DNA of 64,000 nt from Cucumis sativus (taxonomy: Eukaryota; Streptophyta; Magnoliopsida; Cucurbitales; Cucurbitaceae): positions 22,972,408 through 23,036,407 of the forward strand of contig NC_026657.2 in NCBI RefSeq assembly GCF_000004075.3. Reading direction: 5' to 3'. Of this stretch, positions 37,120 through 50,440 are shown in pieces (within the stretch, counting starts at the first letter, position 1; each line of letters begins with the position of its first letter). The notes under the pieces are model-generated. The model saw only the letters and a program-made list of their open reading frames with translations. It had not been told where the DNA came from and did no database searches. The position numbers and the translations under genes are program-made.

Positions 37120-38020
37120 GGAAAATGCGTACCCAAGTGATCACAAACCTCTCTGTGCCCGACTCATCTGCTCGATCATCTTCTTCATCTCTTCCATTTG
37201 TCGTGCATGGTCTGTCATTTATCGATCTCGCTCCTCCTCCCTCAGGCGTTGTTCATGTGTGCCTAGTGGTCATACAAATTGGAGGAAGAAGATGAAGCGA
37301 CACTCGTCCTAGGCTTGGGTTTTGGGCCCTAACCAAGACCTTTTGATTAGTTCGATCGTCTACCCAAAATTGTCTTGCATATCTCGTCCTCTGTTAGTGG
37401 TTGAGAACCCACTGGAACGAGTTGAGACTGAATTTCCACCATTTGATTCTACACAATAGAAGCTTGTAATTAAGTTTGAGAGATGATCAAACTTAAAAAC
37501 AGAATTGAAAGTATAACAAGACATAAAGTTTTCTTAAACTTACAAAACTGTCCTCTACTGCTGGTGAAATGAACTCGCCAGTACTACTGACGTGCGTTTC
37601 GCTGAATAACTCGACACGGTCCATCAGACAATCGTGTAGTTTAGTGAGCTCTATTTGTCTTTGAAGAAATGACTTTGTACCGCTCCTGTGATTGTAAGGT
37701 CGTCGCACCCTAATAGCCTTGCCCATATTTGATTGCTCCGACATTCCAAAAATGACGATGATCAAAATGTTATACTTTCAAACAAATTAAATAAATAAAT
37801 GTTAATTGATTTCAACATAATTAAAACTATGTAAATCACCTGAAATTGTCGAGTGATGTAGTGTGCCAATCTTCCACCTGATTGACCAACCTCGGGGGTG
37901 GGTTTGTTCGTGCTTGTTCAAGATCGCTAAACTTCTTAAAAGGTCGATGGTTACTGAGCATTTGATGCTCAACAAACCGATTAAGTGTTGGATCGTTTAG
38001 ATCAAACACGAAAAATTGCT
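37120..38020 (-). pseudogene. Plant transposase-like protein (Ptta/En/Spm, Transposase_24 type), broken
   Basis: Minus-strand pieces in order: RFVEHQMLSNHRPFKKFSDL and EQARTNPPP (about 37990-37870), then YNHRSGTKSFLQRQIEL and DRVELFSETHVSSTGEF (37700-37560), then QSQLVPVGSQPLTEDEIC and ILGRRS (37440-37350), then a C-terminal coiled-coil EERDR / HARQMEEMKKMIEQMSRAQR (37230-37140). This is the canonical order for the small CACTA-associated protein. Stop codons in the third exon and a frame change near 37250 show it is non-functional. It lies in the element with matching CACTA ends, so it is element-encoded. Confidence 0.8.
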
Positions 38021-38520: not shown

Positions 38521-38750
38521 TAGTGTTTGATTGCCATGTGTCACTCCCTCTATATTCTAACTATATTGTCATGTGTGTTCTTGAAGATACCAATTTTTAG
38601 TAATCGTGTAAGACCTCATAGTTGTTAAATTGGAGATAGTGAAAATTTTTGGAGAGATTTCATATTTTCTTAATTTTAATATTATATTATCTTATTATCT
38701 ATTTTTTGACTGTGTCTCATTTTTATAACAAATTATTAGCCTAAGCTTTT
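38521..38750 (+). repeat. 5' LTR-like end of the split copia element
   Basis: It aligns by eye with 50155-50440. Both have ATTG(C/T)CATG.(G/A)TCA, then a TTTGGAGAG block and an ATTATA(T/C)TAT(C)T block. Exact ends and target duplication were not found. Confidence 0.55.
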
Positions 38751-40039
38751 TTTTTTTTTACTAAAGGTAGGTTCGAAAATTATGTCGGTTTTCTCGTACT
38801 CGTTATAATTAATAAATATTATTTTGCATGATTGATATATATTAAATTTCTAATAAAATTACAATATTTTGTAATAATGGTACAATGACAAATATTACAA
38901 AATTATAATTTCTAGTATTTCATACAAATAGTAACAATTATTTATCATGAATGTTTAATGTTGAAATACATCGAGATGCCATTAAAACATGAGCATAAAA
39001 AATCAATTATTCTTTATAAAACTCGTTATAAATAGATGCACTTGAGGCTCCAAAATTTTAAATCAATATGTTAGAGAAGATTTTTCTATGTTATGGATAC
39101 CTTATTGTAGTAGAAATATCGAGAGAAATATTTGAAAATTATTATGCACTTATCTGATGTCTTTTCGTGGATGAATGGAATAACAGATTGTTGTTTGAAA
39201 AATCATGAATATTGGGCAACTAAAGAACTAACATTTTCTAAAGCGAATGCTGTAAATTTTAATAATGGTGGATGCAAAATTATGAATATTGACGAACTGG
39301 AACAATCTCATTCTATGAAGTAAATGTTGTAAATTTAACAATTGTAATCGAGATTGTGATTGCAAGCAGTAAAGGAAAAAATAATTTTTATTTGTGATTG
39401 GTCGTCATATAATCACCCAAATCTCAAAAGCTCGTTAAAGAAAAGAGGAAATGTGAAATAAAATTTTGGATATAAGATTAATAATATATTTGACCCATCT
39501 ACTATTATAGATTTAGATGTTGGTAGAGTTTTTGATTCTCCTCCGGAGAAAATTAGCATATTTTCATAAGATAGCGCAAACATTTTCTTTATGGATTTAT
39601 ATAGTAATTAATGCTTTTTATGAATCATTTTCTTTTATATATTCTAAACTTTGTTTCTCTCACGTATGTCTAGCAAACGGTGCGTAACTGCACACAATAC
39701 TGATAAGTAAAAACCATTTTTCCAAATCGACAATTCTAGAAGCAAAAGTCAATACGATATCAAGTTTGCAAACCTAATTGAAGGATTTGAAAAAACAAAT
39801 ATTATTTAATTTTTCTTAGAGGAACAAAGTTCACAATTGATAATACATTGTTCTCTAATCAATTAAAGAGACGTCTATTGAGTTTTAAAGATATATGTTA
39901 CAATGGTTATTATATTAAGACTGATAAAAAAAATGAGACAAAATATATTTATATCATCGATCTCCAGTCTCTCAAATGAAAAACATATACTGTAAAAGTT
40001 GTTTGGTTTATCTTCTAAATTATATTATACTCATATATG

Positions 40040-40283
40040 ACAAAGATCACTCGATGCATTGAAACAATTAAGACGAATGTTGTATAATCGCCTGAGTGGA
40101 TATTTTTTGAAAGAAGGATAAAAATAATTCAATATGTTCATGCATTTCAATAAAGAAATTACAATTAGAATTTTCTATTAATTATAAGTGCATTATGTTG
40201 CTGATTTAAATATAAATGAAACTCTTCGAGATCAACTTTTAAAGGCAATAGAATATCTTAAAAAAAAATTCAAAATGAAAGAT
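40040..40283 (+). pseudogene. Copia reverse transcriptase fragment before the MULE
   Basis: Reads SLDALKQLRRMLYNRLSGYF, then after frameshifts VADLNINETLRDQLLKAIEY and KKKFKMKD. The last three codons, ATG AAA GAT, are exactly the MULE target site. The frame continues at 43782. Confidence 0.75.
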
Positions 40284-40393
40284 GGGGAATTATCAAAAAT
40301 AGGATAATTTGGAAGGATGTAAAGAGTTTTGAGATGAATTTTAAAAAAGATGACTTTTAGGACAAATTAGTTGGAAAAAGTCTATATTACCCT
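40284..40393. repeat. MULE left terminal inverted repeat
   Basis: About 110 bp, imperfectly matched to 43672-43781. The best shared blocks are the first 18 bp and TAGGACAAATTA. Confidence 0.85.
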
Positions 40394-40920
40394 CAAGTTA
40401 AAAAATATCCTAAAATCAATTTATGAATCCTCTCTTCTCCTTCTCCCTCTCCCTCCGTTTTTTCACTTTCTAAAAATGTTTCATTTTTCTCTCATCCCTC
40501 CCTCTGGTGTTCCATTTTCCCTCATTTTCACGAAATTTCCTTTTTCTTCATTTTCCATTCTTTAATTCGTTTTCTTGAAATTTCTTTCTGAAGCTCTTCC
40601 CATGGTCTCCCACCGGCCTTTGAAAACCATTTTCTCCATTTTCTCACTTCCAAAAAGAATATTTCATTTTTCTCTCATCTCTCTCCATTTTCATACATTG
40701 TAGGATAAATTGGCCTTCCTAATTCTAAGAGCATGAAAATGTTGCTCTCACCTGCATTGTTGTACATTATATAAAAGTTCTGCACACTTTACAATTTTCC
40801 AAGATAATGAAATAAAAATTGCATACCAAAAAACAAAAATGGTATTCATTCCATTATATAAAACTATTTATGTACATAGTTTGGAACATATACAATTCCT
40901 TCAAAAGTTGGAACTAAAAG

Positions 40921-41378
40921 TCAATACATGGGATTGTTGGTCCATAATTGAAATGCCAATTGTTTTCTAAAATATGACATGTTTTCTTGACATAATGTAG
41001 CTACATCTAAACCAGAAGCTTCATATTCTACTTAATTGTAAATACACCACAATCACTATTGTTGCGTTGAAGTGGAATGGAGTCGACAATGACAAGTGGC
41101 CAAGGTTCCTTGTGTGTTGATGATCCGCCTCTCCTAACAAAGAATCCAGTAGCATCGAGCAAATTTGGCACCATCTCTTGAATTGGCTCTAATATGCTTC
41201 TCATATCTTCGGCACTCGTCAGCGACGGAAGCGAATCCCATACCTTAACTTGACAACGTACCAAGTCCAAGCATAATATAATCCAATGATTGCCATGGAT
41301 ATTGAATGGAGAGTAAATGTAATCAACATTCACCCAAGGATCTTGACAGTCTTGTTTTGATCCGACAACATAGTCAAC
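40921..41378 (-). pseudogene. Ulp1-type SUMO protease C-terminal domain (C48), frameshifted
   Basis: A segment after an AG acceptor reads VDYVVGSKQDCQDPWVNVDY and on through the C48 core. The catalytic residues are present: His in GNHWI, Asp in VWDSLPS, Gln in PLQRNNS and Cys in SDCGVF. After TIK the frame is lost and a stop appears. A second frame carries EYEASGLDVATLCQEN and the tail to a TGA at 40921-40923, so a small deletion (about 4 bp) is the likely lesion. Family members cleave SUMO conjugates. In MULEs the role is unknown, and this copy is probably dead. Confidence 0.85.
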
Positions 41379-41546
41379 CTGCTTACTAAATGTGATAAAC
41401 TACTTACTATAGACTGAAAATGATGAGCAGGGTCAATCTTGTACATGGGACCGTTAGTTGATGTCGAAGCCATACTGAAACCTGCATAAAAAAACTAATT
41501 AAATATAATTGCATAAGAGACTTACTAAACATGGATGCACTAGCAT

Positions 41547-42387
41547 CTTGGGACTTTTACTCAAAATTTTGGAAGGTGAGAGATAGATGCTGATAGGTGC
41601 AAGATGCTGGAAAACTTCAAGGCAAAGTTGCTAAGTCTAATAAAATTGCTAACCCTAAAGCCTTAACACCTAGTAGAGTAGCTAAACATGCATTCTAAAC
41701 GGTTTAGGAAGGTTAACACTCTCATCTTGGGACTTCTACTCAAAATTTTGGAAGGTGAGAGATAGGTGCTGATAGGTGCGAGATGCTGGAAAACTTCAAG
41801 GCAAAGTTGCTAAGTCTAATAAAATTGCTAACCCTAAAGCCTTAACACCTAGTAGAGTCCCTAAACATGCATTCTAAACGGTTTAGGAAGTTTACACTCT
41901 TATATTGGGACTTCTACTCAAAATTTTGGAAGGTGCGAGATAGGTGCTGATAGGTGCGAGATGATGGAAAACTTCAAGGCAAAGTTGCTAAGTCTAATAA
42001 AATTGCTAGCTAAACATGCATTCTAAACGGTTTAGGAAGTTAACACTCTTATATTAGGACTTCTACTCAAAATTTTGGAAGGTGAGAGATGATAGGTGCG
42101 GCATGATGGAAAATTTCAAGGCAAAGTTGCTAAGTCTAATAAAATTGCTAACCCTAAAGCCATAACACCTAGTAGACTAGCTAAACATGCATTCTAAACG
42201 GTTTAGGAAGGTTAACACTCTCATCTTGGGACTTCTACTCAAAATTTTGGAAGGTGCGAGATAGGTGCTGATAGGTGCGAGATGATGGAAAAATTCAAGG
42301 CAAAGTAGCTAAGTCTAATAAAATTGCTAACCCTAAAGCCTTAACACCTAGTAGACTACCTAGACTAGCTAAACATGCATTCTAAAG
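41547..42387. repeat. Five-unit minisatellite inside the MULE
   Basis: Units anchored on (C/A)TT(G/A)GGACTTCTACTCAAAA start at 41547, 41726, 41904, 42053 and 42225 (spacings 179, 178, 149 and 172 bp). Each contains GATAGGTGC, AACTTCAAGGCAAAGT, AACACCTAGTAGA and TAAACATGCATTCTAAACGG. The third unit has lost about 30 bp. Confidence 0.9.
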
Positions 42388-43671
42388 ATTGTATTCTATT
42401 GGAACTACATCACTAAAAACATTAACAAAGTAGAGAACAACAATGCAGCTTATGATAATGTCTTTCAACAAATTGCAAAGGAAATGGTCTTTCAACAATG
42501 CAGCTTATGATATTCTATTGTACTGGTAGCTTTGCAGAGTTTATATGGGATACCAAATATATGTTCGAATTCAAGTTCTAAACTCCAAGGTATGGTTTTT
42601 CTATTATTACAGTACATTGCAAAGGAAATGATGGATACGGCACTGCCAACGTAGAGGAGTGGATAAGAAATGGAGAGGTCCGGTGAAAACAAACCTGAAA
42701 TCGAAATGGATGGAAGTGGAGAAGCGTCCGCCGGAGTTGAAGTCGAAAGTAAAACAGAGACACGTGCAATGTCAGTAGTACGACTCTCCTTCCTTGCATT
42801 TTGAAGATTAGTGAATATCCCTTCAAGGTCATTAACACAATTCTTTTCTTTTTCCTTCAAAACCTAATGAGAAGTAGATTGATATTTACTCTTCAAACCC
42901 TTTGGCATTGATCCGTCTCTTTTCTTCCACCAAAATTATCTTAGCAGCAACTGAAAAAAAAAGAAATCACAATGAAGCACCAACCCTATATATAAAGTCC
43001 GTTCAGATTGCAAAACAGAATCTACCCAAAAGGAAAAAAATCATATGGGCTTTCGAAACAAATACATTTCTAATGCTACCATTGAATATTCATCCACTCC
43101 CTCTTACTCAGTTCAAAAAATAGGAGACTGAATTGGAAACAAGTAAAATTGTAACCATTATAACGATCATAAAATGATCACAAAATTTCACCTAAGCTAA
43201 TCCATCCTTACCTAGGTCTCTATTTAAAATTTCGGCAAAATCTTAAACATGTTTTTCTATCATGTACTAATTCACCGTGATCTCTGTGTGCCATCATCAA
43301 AGATTCGACTCAGTAAGCGGTCTTTTGATTCAACCCTAATTCACGTATTAAAAAGGAAGAAAAATAGAAATAAACAAAGAATAGTTACCCACCAAATTGC
43401 TGAATATTTGAGTCGAAAATCAGAGGAAAGTTTGGAGGAAGAAGATTAGGGGGTTTAGTTTTTTCCTTAGAGAAGTAACAAGTGTAGCTTTGGCTCTTTG
43501 TTCAGATCTTTTAGTTCACACCGGAGGAGCGACGAACGACATCCGAGAAGCGATGATATGCACCGAAGTAGAAGGAGAAGAAAGCGAATGTGTGTGTGTG
43601 TGTGTTTTTTTTTTTTTTTTGTGCGTTTTGTTTCTGCGTTGAGGAGAAGGAATGGAAGGTAAAATGAATTA

Positions 43672-43781
43672 AGGGTAATTTAGACAATTCACACATAATT
43701 TGTCCTAGAAATCAACTTTTTAAAAATCAATCTCATAAATCTTTTATTCCTCCATTTTTGGCTTATTTTTGGTAATTTCCC
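43672..43781. repeat. MULE right terminal inverted repeat
   Basis: Reverse-complement partner of 40284-40393, with the same length and spacing of shared blocks. Confidence 0.85.
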
Positions 43782-44356
43782 ATGAAAGATCTCATAAAAA
43801 TAAAATTTTGCCTTAACTTGTGAAAGATCTCAAGAAAATGTGATATTTGTTCATCAATCAACTTATACAATAAAAAAAATTGAAAAGGTCTTATATGGAT
43901 AAAACATATTCATTGAACATTCCAAAACAAGTTCGTTCACGAGATGTGAAGAATATGTATTTTTTACCTCAAGATGATAACAAAAAACTTCTAGCTAGGT
44001 CCAAAAGTACCATATCTTAGTGCAATTTGTGCACTTATGTATCTTGCTAATAATACAAGACTCAAACATTGCATTTTTAGTAAATTTATTAGCTAGACAC
44101 AGTTCATCTTCAACAAAAATTCATTGAAATTAAATTAAGCATATACTTTGTTATCTTCGATCAATTGATATGAGTTTGTTTTATTTAAATAAATCAAAAT
44201 TTGATTTATAATTAGTTGGTTTTGCATATTGTGGATAATTATCTAATTCACACCAAATTAGATCTCAAACAAGTTATCTATTCACATGTAGAGGAACTGC
44301 TATATCAAGACATGCAATTAATGAAACAGACCATGATAGCCACCTTCTCAAATCAT
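43782..44356 (+). pseudogene. Copia RT/RNase H fragment between the MULE and the CACTA element
   Basis: It resumes MKDLIKIKFCLNL, the expected continuation of the copia MKDLGKTKFCLGL motif. The middle resembles VPYLSAICALMYLANNTRLK after frame changes. It ends in a segment read ATFSNH, just before the CACTA insertion. Many stops and frameshifts. Confidence 0.75.
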
Positions 44357-45133
44357 CACTAGTAGAAAAATGGTTTACTATGACAGTTGTATATATCCCA
44401 AATTGAAAGGAGAAAATAAAAAACTGTCACAAAAGCTAAAAAACCGCGTTTTTGGCGGGAAAAGACGGAATTTTTCGGATTTTACTTTTCGCGACAGTTA
44501 TTTGGTGTCATAAAAGATACAAAAAATATTTTATTTAATTTATTAAAATAAAATTTATTTTAAATAAAAAATTTATTAAAATCAGATTTTTTCCTAATTC
44601 TAAAAACATTAAATAATTTATTTATTAAAATAAAACATCTCCAAAACTTTTTCTCTACCTCCTCCTCCTCTTCTTCTTCTCTTCTTCTTCTCTTCTTCTT
44701 CTTCTCTTTGGAAGATCCACACGTCGCCCCTCTTCGATTTTTCCTCCCATCCGCTAACCATCTCTCTCCCTCTCTCACATACGCCGGAAAAGACTAGACG
44801 TTTGGTCAACAACGCGCAAAATCCCTCTCTTTCTCTCCTTCAGCCGATGCAACCACCCAACACCCCTTGCACCGCTGAACTCACTGGTGAATCTCAACCA
44901 TTATTTCTATTGTTTGTATTTATACAGTATATTAACTTCAAATGCTTTCATTTTACCCACAATGTGATATATTGATGGTTCTTTTTATGAAAAACATCCA
45001 TCATAGTTTTGCTTTTATATGAGATATGTGTTTGTTTTGTCTACCATCCTATTCAATATTGTTGTTTACAATCATTTTTCTAATTTGAATCTACATTTTT
45101 TCTTTATGGTTGGCTATGTGATGAAACATTTTG

Positions 45134-45215
45134 GTAGCTTACAATGTGTTTGATGAAATGCCTCAATGAATCATTTTTGTAGCTTACAATGTGTTTGATG
45201 AAATGCCTCAATGAA
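45134..45215. repeat. 45-bp tandem duplication with a PPR-like peptide
   Basis: Two copies of GTAGCTTACAATGTGTTTGA..., starting at 45134 and 45179. Each reads AYNVFDEMPQ and then a stop. VFDEMP is typical of plant PPR proteins. The sister element has YVFDEIPKRK near 15695. Confidence 0.8.
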
Positions 45216-46357
45216 GCATTTGGTTGATTTTTTATTGATATTTGTTCGTTCGAATTAGGAAATCAAGGTCAAGGGAGATGTCATGGCTATGGGCTGAAGC
45301 TTTGAGAAAAAGAGAATGAAAAATGAAATGTGAGATTTTAAACTTTGTTAGTGTGTAGGGTCTTTTTGTTTGTCTATGTATTTTCCAAAATTAATACTTT
45401 TGATTTTTCTATTGATATTTTGTTTATGGTTGCTATTGAGTTGCTTTGATTGAAGGATAGAGGGAAGTGATTATTGATAATTATAGGTATGTTCTCTCCC
45501 TTTCTTACAATAAGGACAGTAGCAACAAAAATTACTACATGTTCTATATTGAAAGGAAAAGCAAAAAAATGATGGTGAATTAAGATTTATTTTGTATGGT
45601 AGAATTTTATTTGCCACTCACTTACTATGCTAGACCTTTCCAAGAGGAGTAAATTTGAAAATGTCGAAATACACCATCTGCTTGAAACATAAACCGCGAT
45701 GTATGTTATACACATTGGAAATGTATGAATGTGTATGTTGAAACTTAAGCCTATACACTTTCCAAGAGAATTTATGTATGTTATCTATTTGGTTTTTGAC
45801 TTTAAGTTTTTGAAACTTAAGCCTATACACTTTTTTTACCTCTACTTTTAATCAACGTTTTTAAACTATATTTTCTTCCTATGACTACCTTATGACATTT
45901 TGAATAATTGATTGAATTGAGGATTAGCATAAAGTTCTCTTACTTCAAGGACGTTGTCGTTATTTGTTCAAGTAAGTAGTATCTACCTCTCTACCAAAAT
46001 ACATATTCAACTATTGTGGTTTAAAGTATATTTTGTATAATTCTAGTCTCGTTGAAAGTGTTTTAGTCTAATTAGTATGGTATATTAGTAGTATATCAAC
46101 GTTTGCTTGAATTAATATCATCCAAAATCTCCATAGTAGTTATTTCCTTACTTTGAAAGATCTTGTTGTTCCTTTCCAACAATAGTGTTGGAAATTGGGG
46201 GAGGGGGGGATTAAGGGCTTTATGAGAGTTATCAACTCAACTTTGTCAAATTGTCATGTAAATGGAGTACGATTTAATCATTGAACATTTTTTCATACTT
46301 AGGGCTTGAAGAATCCTCGAGAGAGTGACAATGCTTGTTGAATTTTTATGAAAATGC

Positions 46358-47460
46358 AACATTGAAAAGGTATTACTTATGAGTATTTATGTTCAATCTT
46401 ATTTTGTTGTGATCAATTGAGATGCATAATATGCACTAGAAATTTGTTAAAGTGCTAGACTTATATGTTTTTTTGATAGGGTTGGAAGGGCTCCAAGGTA
46501 CGTTTTTAACTATTGAATTACAATGAAAATTGTTTGAACTTGTTAGTTCAAAGTTTAAATTGAGTTTAGCTTGTGAAACTCAAAGATTTCATTTGTATAC
46601 TGATTATATATGTTGGTGTGGAATAGTTTATCTTGCATGTACCTAACAAAATGATTATGTTTGCTTGATTATATTTCTATTTGTCAATTTTCTTAAAGGT
46701 TTTGAGTGAACTCAAGTTTATGGTAGATTGGGGTACATTAAAGTTTATTGAACTTATTTTTCATTGTCCCATTACATAATGTCCTATATAAGGTGTGTAT
46801 ATATATATCTTGTTATATTTTTTTTAATCTTTCTTAAAGTTTATAAACCATGGAAAGTAAGTAGAACAGTAGTTTCTCGTCAGGTTTTGTTTCTAGAGAC
46901 ATGTCTTTTATGTACATAGTTCTCTTTAGGGTTTGTTGAAATTGGTTTGTTGTGAATATCTATGGATTTTATGAGAGTCACCAAAAAAAAAAACACAATG
47001 GTTTGTTTATCCCACATTGTTCTTGTAGTGTACCATTTTGATCAATTATGTTAATAACATGTTTTGAAATTGGAGCTTCTGCGTTTTGTTGTGTCGTTTG
47101 TTTATTGATTAATGGTAATTTGTAGTATCAAGGCTACCCTAATCTATTGGCATATTTGAGGAGATTGTTGATTTTTCTTCCCATGTATTTTACTTCTTCA
47201 AGTTAAACTAAGTGAATAATGAATCCCATTTCATTCATTTTTGCTATTTGGTATCTCATCGTATTTTTTTTATTATTATTAAAATGAAGTTTGTTTAATG
47301 ATCAACATTGAAAAGGTATTGCTTATGGGTATTTATGTTCAATCTTATTTTGTTGTGATCAATTGAGATGCATAATATGCACTAGAAATTTGTTAAAGTG
47401 TTAGACTTATCTGTTTTGTTTTTTTTTTAATCGGGTTGGAAGGACTTCAACGTACATTTT
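46358..47460. repeat. Direct repeat pair of about 150 bp inside the CACTA element
   Basis: Copies at 46358-46507 and 47304-47460 share AACATTGAAAAGGTATT, ATTTATGTTCAATCTTATTT and GCATAATATGCACTAGAAAT. They are about 95 percent alike by eye and lie 946 bp apart. Confidence 0.85.
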
Positions 47461-47493
47461 GTTAAAGAAAATTTGATCTTTATATGGCTAGGT

Positions 47494-47645
47494 TGATGAG
47501 TTTCCAATTTCAAAAGTCTACCTAAAGCTCTATTGTTTGTTTAACTCAAAGGTAAAAAAAAAGTAAAGTATGTGGACTTGCACCGAATAGAGCCATGGTA
47601 AGTTTCCAATTTCAAAAGTTTACCTAAAGCTCTATTGTTTATTGA
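47494..47645. repeat. Short direct repeat pair of about 45 bp
   Basis: GTTTCCAATTTCAAAAGT followed by CTACCTAAAGCTCTATTGTT occurs at about 47499 and again at 47602, with one or two differences. Confidence 0.8.
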
Positions 47646-48227
47646 TGAGTTTCCATAGAATTTTGTAAGTTTGAGAAGAGTTGTGGAAATTTGGGACAAT
47701 ACCACCCTCCTTACTTGTATTTATTCTCATTCTTATTAAGTTTTTCTAACTACGTTTCTTTGGTCCCTCAAGGATATGTCAAACTGTTCAACTTTAAGGA
47801 CTACAAATTGTCATACATGTATTGTCGTAGCGTTTTTGTTGTAAGGACTAAGAACGACCCAACTTTAAGGACTACAAATGGTTATTTTGCTCTACTTTAA
47901 ACATTGTGAACTTTTCATTGATGAAATTTGCATACCTTGGACATTTTTTTTTTGAAGTACCTTTCTTATCATGGACAACAGTGCAGTAAGCCTAGGGAGG
48001 AGGAAACTTCTTCTTTGGCCGGTCTCACATTTTTCAATGTAATAGGTTTTAACTTAAGAGTAGAGTATGTACAGATTCTTAGAGCTAGTATTGACAATGG
48101 GATAATAAACTAAATTTCATCGAAGAAGAGTTAACCAAAGAATAGCTAATGTTTGTTACTATATTTAATTTTGAGAGTTTTATTGCAAGAAACAAGGGTG
48201 AGAGAGTGCTTTGCATTCTTATACTTG

Positions 48228-48297
48228 AAGCTTCGATCTCATCTCACTTCTTGTTTTTCTGCTTGTCATGCTAAGCTTCGATCTCATCTCACTTCTT
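48228..48297. repeat. 25-bp direct repeat, 45-bp spacing
   Basis: Copies at 48228-48252 and 48273-48297 both read AAGCTTCGATCTCATCTCAC followed by TTCTT. Confidence 0.9.
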
Positions 48298-48678
48298 CCA
48301 TCGTGTACATGTTTGAAGAAACCTCAACCCAAGTAACTAGGAAAAATTAGTTTGTGGAATTACTTGTGAGAACAGGATTATATATTTCATGGTTGACATT
48401 TTGCAATTGACATTTTGCACGTACAAATGAACACCATCATTTCTATTCATGAAAAATATTCAAGAGTGGTTGTATATATATTGGTTTGATGTGCCCTAAA
48501 CCTCAACCCTATCTAGTGCTTTATGCACACATACACACACACTTGAACTATCTGTATTTGTCTCTTTTTGTCTCCATGAATAATGAGAAGCCAATACAAA
48601 CAGATGAATTCTCTGTTTGGTTCTCTTTCTCTATCTCGATGTTGGGAAAAAGCTAAATATTTGAGGCATTGATTTCAG

Positions 48679-48755
48679 GAATTGGTGCAAGGGTTTGATC
48701 AAGAGGCTGCTGCAGTTGTTGTGGCAAGATTAACTTCATAAAAAATGGAGATGAA
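48679..48755 (+). pseudogene. Captured SEC23 (COPII coat) exon fragment
   Basis: After a TTTCAG acceptor the frame reads ELVQGFDQEAAAVVVARLTS, then TAA, then KMEMK. Plant SEC23 has the conserved FDQEAAAVxMARLTSxKME segment, so the stop replaces one residue inside the motif. SEC23 is a COPII coat component acting at the ER. This single exon inside the CACTA element is a captured fragment, not a gene. No other SEC23 exon was recognised nearby. Confidence 0.7.
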
Positions 48756-49775
48756 AGTATTCTTAAATGCTTATATCCTTAAAAATGCTTATATCACTTA
48801 TATTTATTCGTTTACGTCACCAATAATTCTCTTCAACATTTTACATTCACATTACTACATGGTAGCCCTCCATTTTCTTCTTTGTTGTGGTAATGTTGGT
48901 TCACAAATGTATGTGTTATGGACGCTTATATTCATGTTGTCTTCGTAGGTTCAACCGGAGTCGACAACTTCATGAGTTTTCTTTCAAAGAACATTTTCAG
49001 AGACAAACATTCTCGGTTGGTCGTTTATGCTTCTGCAGAAAATCTTGTTAGATGTATTCTAATGCTATTTAAAATATTTTTTTGATTAAGGGTTGGGATT
49101 CCGTACTTGTAAATTGTTGACACTTGATTGAAAATGTACGAATATTATAAATTGTATTATATCGTATATATATTAAAGTGTTGCTACTTTTTTCTGGGTG
49201 TCAATATTATAAATTCAAAATTGTCATTCTCAGCTACATTATTGTCATTCAAATGGTTCGTGTAATGGTGGAGAAGCAAGGAGAACCGGAAAAAACTGTA
49301 GTAAATTGAGAAATTTGCAATATAAAATAAATGATTAATTGTTGTCAATCCGAAAACGATCACAGTTGTTTAATCAAATAAATTGTCACGATTACCCTAT
49401 ATGTGACAAAAAAAATGTCGTCAATAGCAAAACAATGACATTTTTATACAAAAACACTGTCGCGATTAACATATTCATGACAATTAAAAAATGTCACAAT
49501 AAATGAATTCGCGACATTTATTTAACCGTCGTTAATACACAAATGATGATAGTTATTTGTTGTCATAAAATAAAATATGACAGTTACTTGACGTCGTTGA
49601 ATTCTGATTAACGACCTTTATTTCATGTCATAAAATAACTTATTGCGACAGTTTTTAAAAACTGTCATTGAAGGACTTTCCATGACTCCCGCTTCTATGA
49701 CTGAAAATAATTGTCGCGAATTTCGTTTACGACAGTAAATAACTGTCGTCGTAGACCACTTTTGTACTAGTGCAT

Positions 49776-50145
49776 GTTGAAGTTCTTGCAATAATGTACG
49801 AGGCCAAGTCGAGAATGTGTATGGCTAAGATCAATGACTCAGCACATTCATGGAACATGTGGCTTGTCTTCTAGTAAAATTATTCCAACAATACTATAGG
49901 AAGACAACATGTCATGTATAGCTCAAATCAAAGAGGGATATATTAAGGGAGAGAAATCAAAGCATATATTTCACCTAAGTTTTTCTACACTCGTGATCTA
50001 TTGAAGAAAATGACGACACATCAAAGTACAACAAATTTGTTCAAAAATAACTCTAACAGACTTATTTACAAAATCATTACCAACCTTAATATTTGAAAAA
50101 TTGGTGTACAACATTCAAATACAGCAACTCAAAGATCTCAAGTGA
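49776..50145 (+). pseudogene. Copia RNase H tail after the CACTA element
   Basis: Reads VEVLAIMYEASRE, then VWLRSMTQHIHGTCGLSS, then YEDNMSCIAQIKEGYIKGEK and KHISPKFFYT. It is followed by a degraded end (LIYKIITNLNI resembling LFTKALPTSTF). It follows directly on the ATFSNH segment before the CACTA insertion. Confidence 0.8.
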
Positions 50146-50154
50146 GTAATGTTT

Positions 50155-50440
50155 AGTGTCTATTGTCATGCATCAGTCCCTCCATATTCTCACTACATTC
50201 TCATATACCCTGAAAATATCAAGTTTTAACGATTATATAATTCATCTCATGTTGACAAATTATATCTAAATAGTGATATTTTGTGAATTTTGTTAGACAC
50301 CCATTTAGATTTAGATAATTTGGAGAGGTTTTTATTTTCTTATTTTATTTATTTTAATATTATACTATCTCGTTATCTATATTCCCTTTGGTGTCTCCAC
50401 TTTTTACAAGAAAATCTTATTTATAAATTGAAAAACCAAT
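50155..50440 (+). repeat. 3' LTR-like end of the split copia element
   Basis: Pairs with 38521-38750. It starts shortly after the last RNase H-related codons. The exact ends are eroded. Confidence 0.55.

What the first reader, a model, noticed from the sequence alone, without database searches (positions are those of the whole stretch)
38521..50440. A decayed copia element split at codon level by a MULE and by a CACTA transposon
The MULE target duplication ATGAAAGAT is the copia RT motif Met-Lys-Asp, and the copia frame resumes with LIKIKFCL after it. The CACTA target duplication CAT is the His codon in the copia SNH(A/V)E motif, and RNase H resumes with VEVLAI. This gives an exact insertion history: copia first, then the other two.
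Basis: partly seen in the sequence, partly recalled or inferred. Interest (0 to 1): 0.75.

Follow-up and report, generated by a model that had tools for sequence, protein, structure and literature searches.

The report
Old copia split by two transposons
In a cucumber-like plant genome, an old broken copy-and-paste element was later interrupted by two younger cut-and-paste elements whose entry points can be read to the base; this is a clean example of ordinary nested transposon insertion.

Summary
A 3498-bp Mutator-like element (40284-43781, 9-bp duplication ATGAAAGAT) and a 5416-bp CACTA-type element (44357-49772, 3-bp duplication CAT) sit inside a decayed copia remnant (about 38524-50411). 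With both flanks at least 78/120 identical, they meet sharing exactly the duplication at 20 of 29 loci (MULE site) and 22 of 29 (CACTA site); five loci at the first site and one at the second lack a usable flank. Corrections: the two inserts lie side by side, so structure does not order them; private substitutions favour CACTA before MULE (1.09% against 0.34%, 4 rows each), a weak inference. The copia also has an internal deletion junction at about 40040-40054 (about 2.9 kb compared with one relative), LTR-like ends at K2P 0.25, and no target duplication of its own that I could see. The MULE keeps an Ulp1 peptidase segment; relatives carry a MULE transposase beside that segment at 10 of 11 places. 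All families and the process are ordinary: a well-resolved new member of a known kind, low interest.

The parts
38524..38730 (+). 5' LTR-like end of the copia remnant (approximate borders)
   Evidence: aligns with gaps to 50157-50411; K2P 0.254 over 257 compared sites of a somewhat wider alignment that includes flank
38731..40040 (+). 5' internal part of the copia, decayed
   Evidence: matched in pieces at 71-89% by relatives elsewhere in the genome
40040..40054 (+). junction of an internal deletion (about 2.9 kb present at this point in the C2 relative)
   Evidence: matches begin at 40024-40058 in 21 of the 25 3'-side loci that match here; two 5'-side loci (L002, L007) end at 40040 and 40022; places of L002 and L031 on C2 lie 2.9 kb apart
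40054..40283 (+). C-terminal part of reverse transcriptase up to and including the MULE target duplication
   Evidence: mostly 70-80% DNA identity to paralogs, of which some frames hit RVT_2
40275..40283 (+). left copy of 9-bp target duplication ATGAAAGAT
40284..43781 (.). Mutator-like element, non-autonomous, 3498 bp
   Evidence: inverted ends; near-identical full-length copies elsewhere with other duplications
41028..41399 (-). 123-aa open stretch, Ulp1 peptidase C48 domain fragment
   Evidence: PF02902, E 3.1e-18, profile 74-177 of 217
41544..42362 (.). tandem array (179-bp unit) inside the MULE
43782..43790 (+). right copy of ATGAAAGAT
43782..44356 (+). copia segment between the inserts (end of reverse transcriptase to RNase H)
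   Evidence: 40 other matches at 75-82%, two of them at one place
44354..44356 (+). left copy of 3-bp target duplication CAT
44357..49772 (.). CACTA-type element, non-autonomous, 5416 bp; no Pfam domain over a cut-off in the 3 open frames scanned
   Evidence: ends CACTAGTA / TACTAGTG, inverted ends, copies at 96-98% elsewhere
49773..49775 (+). right copy of CAT
49773..50143 (+). copia RNase H remainder to the end of pol
   Evidence: 71-81% DNA identity to paralogs
50157..50411 (+). 3' LTR-like end of the copia remnant (approximate borders)

Best explanation
A copia LTR retrotransposon inserted long ago and decayed (stops, frame breaks, an internal deletion). Later a CACTA-type element and a Mutator-like element each inserted by cut-and-paste integration into its pol remnant, each duplicating 3 or 9 bp of the target by filling a staggered cut. 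Shown: borders, duplications, related empty sites, youth of the inserts relative to the copia. Inferred: that transposases supplied in trans moved both inserts, and that CACTA came before MULE.
For: Exact duplications; exact empty-site overlaps at 20 of 29 and 22 of 29 paralogous loci; RVT_2 in 3 of 7 paralog frames scanned (L026 and L013 over the cut-off, L010 below it); other copies of both inserts end at the same borders; MULE relatives hold a transposase domain 1.4-2.5 kb from the same segment at 10 of 11 places; the best long copia matches are 81% identical while full-length relatives of the inserts are 96-98%; LTR K2P 0.254 against private change of 0.2-0.3% (MULE) and about 1% (CACTA).
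Against: None found against nesting. None of 8 window copia pieces scored over a Pfam cut-off, so its identity rests on DNA identity to paralogs. The copia's own 5-bp duplication was not seen. Not every locus is an exact empty site: L011 and L015 gave overlaps of 10 and 6 at the MULE site, L036 about 92 extra bases (left flank below threshold); L011, L026 and L035 gave 68, 13 and -2 at the CACTA site, taken as small indels or misalignment in decayed copies. No CACTA transposase partner was found.
Confidence: 0.96

Rival explanations
1. Chimera of assembly: the three elements were joined by a misassembly and not by transposition.
For: All three are repeats; the assembly holds stretches about 753 kb apart on C5 whose matches score alike.
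Against: A join error would not create exact 9-bp and 3-bp target duplications at the element ends with the copia continuing in register on the far side.
Confidence: 0.02
2. The order was copia, then MULE, then CACTA (reverse of my preferred order of the two inserts).
For: Position alone does not order them; the CACTA count is from one 1.1-kb stretch and 4 rows only.
Against: Private substitutions: MULE 9 in about 2679 sites outside the tandem array, CACTA 12 in 1103, 4 rows each, Fisher p 0.007. The count depends on which copies were compared.
Confidence: 0.2
3. The CACTA-type insert belongs to another superfamily with 3-bp duplications.
For: No transposase-bearing partner found.
Against: Termini begin CACTA, and the duplications CAT, TTT and TTG are not the TTA/TAA type recalled for PIF/Harbinger (superfamily rules recalled).
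Confidence: 0.04

Closest known systems
Ulp1-bearing Mutator-like elements of melon, Arabidopsis (Kaonashi/KIU) and rice (van Leeuwen 2007 seen only in reference lists; review PMC13317346, passages)
   Same: MULE carrying an Ulp1 peptidase domain
   Different: the window copy has long inverted ends and no transposase was seen in it; the review calls the KIU carriers non-TIR MULEs
CsMULE in the cucumber gene CsMYB60 (PMC6305189, passages)
   Same: cucumber MULE with inverted ends of 117 and 115 bp (about 115 bp here); 6994 bp becoming 7003 bp, which implies a 9-bp duplication
   Different: CsMULE is 6994 bp with a transposase gene; its sequence (MG558001) was not held, so family identity was not tested
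Plant Ty1/copia retrotransposons
   Same: RVT_2 in paralogs, RNase H end of pol, LTR-like ends
   Different: this copy is internally deleted and interrupted twice
Non-autonomous CACTA (En/Spm) elements
   Same: CACTA termini, 3-bp duplication, inverted repeats near the ends
   Different: no transposase-bearing partner identified here

Membership tests
Mutator-like element (MULE) | 8-11 bp target duplication | tested here: met
   9 bp, exact; the 8-11 bp rule is as printed in PMC6305189
Mutator-like element (MULE) | long terminal inverted repeats | tested here: met
   115 bp at 75%
Mutator-like element (MULE) | MULE transposase in the element or its relatives | tested here: met
   met by relatives only: PF10551 beside the shared segment at 10 of 11 places; in the window copy 2 frames were scanned without it and (150 best candidates scored) lists no hit inside it
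CACTA (En/Spm) | termini CACTA...TAGTG | tested here: met
CACTA (En/Spm) | 3-bp target duplication | tested here: met
   CAT here, TTT and TTG at two of three other copies; the third has lost an end
CACTA (En/Spm) | CACTA transposase in a family member | tested here: inconclusive
   no listed PF02992 hit (150 listed) within 15 kb of 40 terminus copies; one lies about 550 bases outside a copy at C3:19368093; lists are capped
Ty1/copia LTR retrotransposon | copia-type reverse transcriptase | tested here: met
   through paralogs only: RVT_2 in L026 and L013 over cut-off, L010 below; 8 of 8 window pieces give no hit over a cut-off
Ty1/copia LTR retrotransposon | two LTRs | tested here: met
   gapped alignment, 257 sites including some flank, K2P 0.254; borders approximate
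Ty1/copia LTR retrotransposon | 5-bp target duplication of the element | tested here: inconclusive
   by eye, the 5 bases outside the approximate LTR ends differ; the ends are uncertain and the element is old

The most novel reading that the evidence does not exclude
Transposase-free MULE derivatives that keep the Ulp1 segment spread recently in this genome because that segment itself helps them (as Ulp1-bearing KIU elements of Arabidopsis are reported to do by lowering methylation of their relatives, PMC13317346 passages), and the window copy is one such recent insertion, possibly still polymorphic among cucumber lines.
Probability: 0.08. Interest if true: 0.4.

Novelty: new member of a known kind. 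Interest (0 to 1): 0.13.

Why it matters
It is a clean nested insertion that gives relative dates for three element families and supplies two presence/absence markers that could be typed across cucumber lines. It changes no general view of how transposons work.

Tried and rejected
Pfam on 8 pieces of the window's own copia gave nothing over a cut-off (one piece had two unrelated matches at E 0.07-0.08), so I used paralogs. The 35 MULE differences private to the window copy (4 rows) first suggested a greater age; 26 of them fall in the tandem array, where repeat turnover and misalignment make them useless for dating, so I left those 26 out of the rate. Dates with the published cucumber rate of 4.5e-9 (PMC6582320, passages) are rough: LTRs about 28 My, CACTA 1.4-2.4 My, MULE 0.5-0.7 My. 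I did not find a CACTA transposase partner. Three literature searches on nested elements and Cucumis CACTA elements showed 15 of 74, 10 of 81 and 10 of 32 papers as listings; none shown has this locus in its title or opening words, which is no proof that it is not in print.

Full report
Place. The window is G000:C3:22972408-23036407; G000 has 226.6 Mb in 88 contigs. Size and seven large contigs fit the cucumber assembly of PMC6582320 (226.2 Mb, 7 pseudo-chromosomes; passages). That this is cucumber is my inference.

Borders. The MULE is 40284-43781 with ATGAAAGAT on both sides; the CACTA-type element is 44357-49772 with CAT on both sides. MULE inverted ends: 115 bp, 75%, E 8e-17; CACTA: 32 bp, 84%. 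Besides the window the genome search lists three MULE copies matched over the full length at 97% (only the 40 best candidates were scored). They differ from the window copy at 38-43 of about 3487 sites and from one another at 5-9 of about 3529. Their flanks carry other direct repeats, 9 bp at L040 and L042 and at least 8 visible at L041 (my reading). The CACTA-type element has three near-full-length relatives at 96-98%, two with TTT or TTG duplications and one missing its last bases.

Empty sites. Instead of rebuilding the copia I took 120 bases on each side of each insert and aligned them apart to 29 paralogous loci (one search listed 40 other matches; loci were cut for the best 29). With both flanks at least 78/120 identical, the MULE flanks overlap by exactly 9 bases at 20 loci, by 10 at L011 and by 6 at L015; two more overlap by 9 below the threshold (L010, L031); L036 has about 92 extra bases with a left flank of 72/120; L024, L027, L035 and L037 lack a usable flank. 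The CACTA flanks overlap by exactly 3 at 22, with 3 more below threshold (L016, L019, L032); L011 gave 68, L026 13, L035 -2, and L018 lacked the right flank. Where both flanks align, no insert of transposon size is seen. Loci that lack a flank cannot exclude one, because they reach only 1500 bases past the match. L022 and L023 are probably one duplicated locus, which lowers each count by one. The target is exactly ATGAAAGAT at 8 of the 20 and CAT at 17 of the 22, the rest being variants (read). These are related sites in other copies, not the same locus in another plant. Both duplications starting at a codon border has a one in nine chance and needs no explanation.

The copia. Of seven paralog frames scanned, three hit RVT_2 (L026 107 bits, L013 64, L010 28.8 with cut-off 31.6) and four did not. 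MKD lies at about profile position 194-196 of 244, by its place in the L010 match. None of eight window pieces scored over a cut-off. The stretch at the active-site motif (YVDD, recalled) reads YVAD in the window. Of 25 3'-side loci with a match in 39960-40283, 21 begin it at 40024-40058; the exceptions are L015, L019, L024 and L031. Two of seven 5'-side loci reach this point and end at 40040 (L002) and 40022 (L007). L002 and L031 lie on C2 with these two places 2.9 kb apart. So the window copy lost an internal stretch there, unless the C2 copy gained one. LTR-like ends differ by K2P 0.254 over 257 sites that include some flank.

Ages. With 4 rows each (the window and three copies), the window copy has 9 private differences in about 2679 MULE sites outside the tandem array (35 in all, 26 in the array) and 12 in 1103 CACTA sites (Fisher p 0.007). 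With more MULE rows (25 on the left, 8 on the right) it is 5 of 2361 (3 of 1068, 2 of 1293). This favours CACTA before MULE. It is weak, because private counts fall as more copies are compared and the CACTA stretch is short; two of its rows have 11 and 5 private differences of their own.

What the MULE is. It holds a 123-aa stretch with the Ulp1 C48 domain. A segment with most of that stretch (query 403-464 to 1095) occurs as a match ending at 1095 at 11 listed places; at 10 of them a MULE transposase domain lies 1.4-2.5 kb away on the same strand; the exception is C48:160489, where the nearest listed one is 10.7 kb away. Six of these ten transposase frames are 810 aa and none of the ten holds a stop. 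The window copy has about 400 bases between its left end and that segment, so I read it as a deletion derivative. A cucumber MULE of 6994 bp with 117- and 115-bp inverted ends and a transposase is published (PMC6305189, passages); Ulp1-bearing MULEs of melon, Arabidopsis and rice are known (PMC13317346, passages). Whether the window element is of the CsMULE family was not tested.

The CACTA partner. None of 150 listed PF02992 hits lies within 15 kb of the 40 listed terminus copies; against 43 of the 94 matches, one hit lies beside a copy at C3:19368093, outside its left end.

Verdict.

Noticed in passing
window 37493-37777 (-): Remnant of a Ptta/En/Spm-type plant transposase (PF03004, E 5.2e-8) just upstream of the copia: another decayed DNA transposon.
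   Followed up: partly
window 41544-42362: A 179-bp tandem array inside the MULE holds 26 of its 35 private differences against three full-length copies, which suggests repeat turnover or misalignment.
   Followed up: partly
G000:C5 about 7.87-8.02 Mb and 8.62-8.78 Mb: Matches of copia, MULE and transposase recur in pairs 753.37 kb apart with equal scores: a large recent duplication or an assembly duplication.
   Followed up: no
G000:C3:19366946-19368093: A CACTA transposase domain (PF02992) lies about 550 bases outside a copy of the CACTA family's left end; the only near candidate partner seen.
   Followed up: no
L070/L071 (G000:C7:15342488-15347872): A near-full-length CACTA copy lacks the last bases of its right end.
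   Followed up: no
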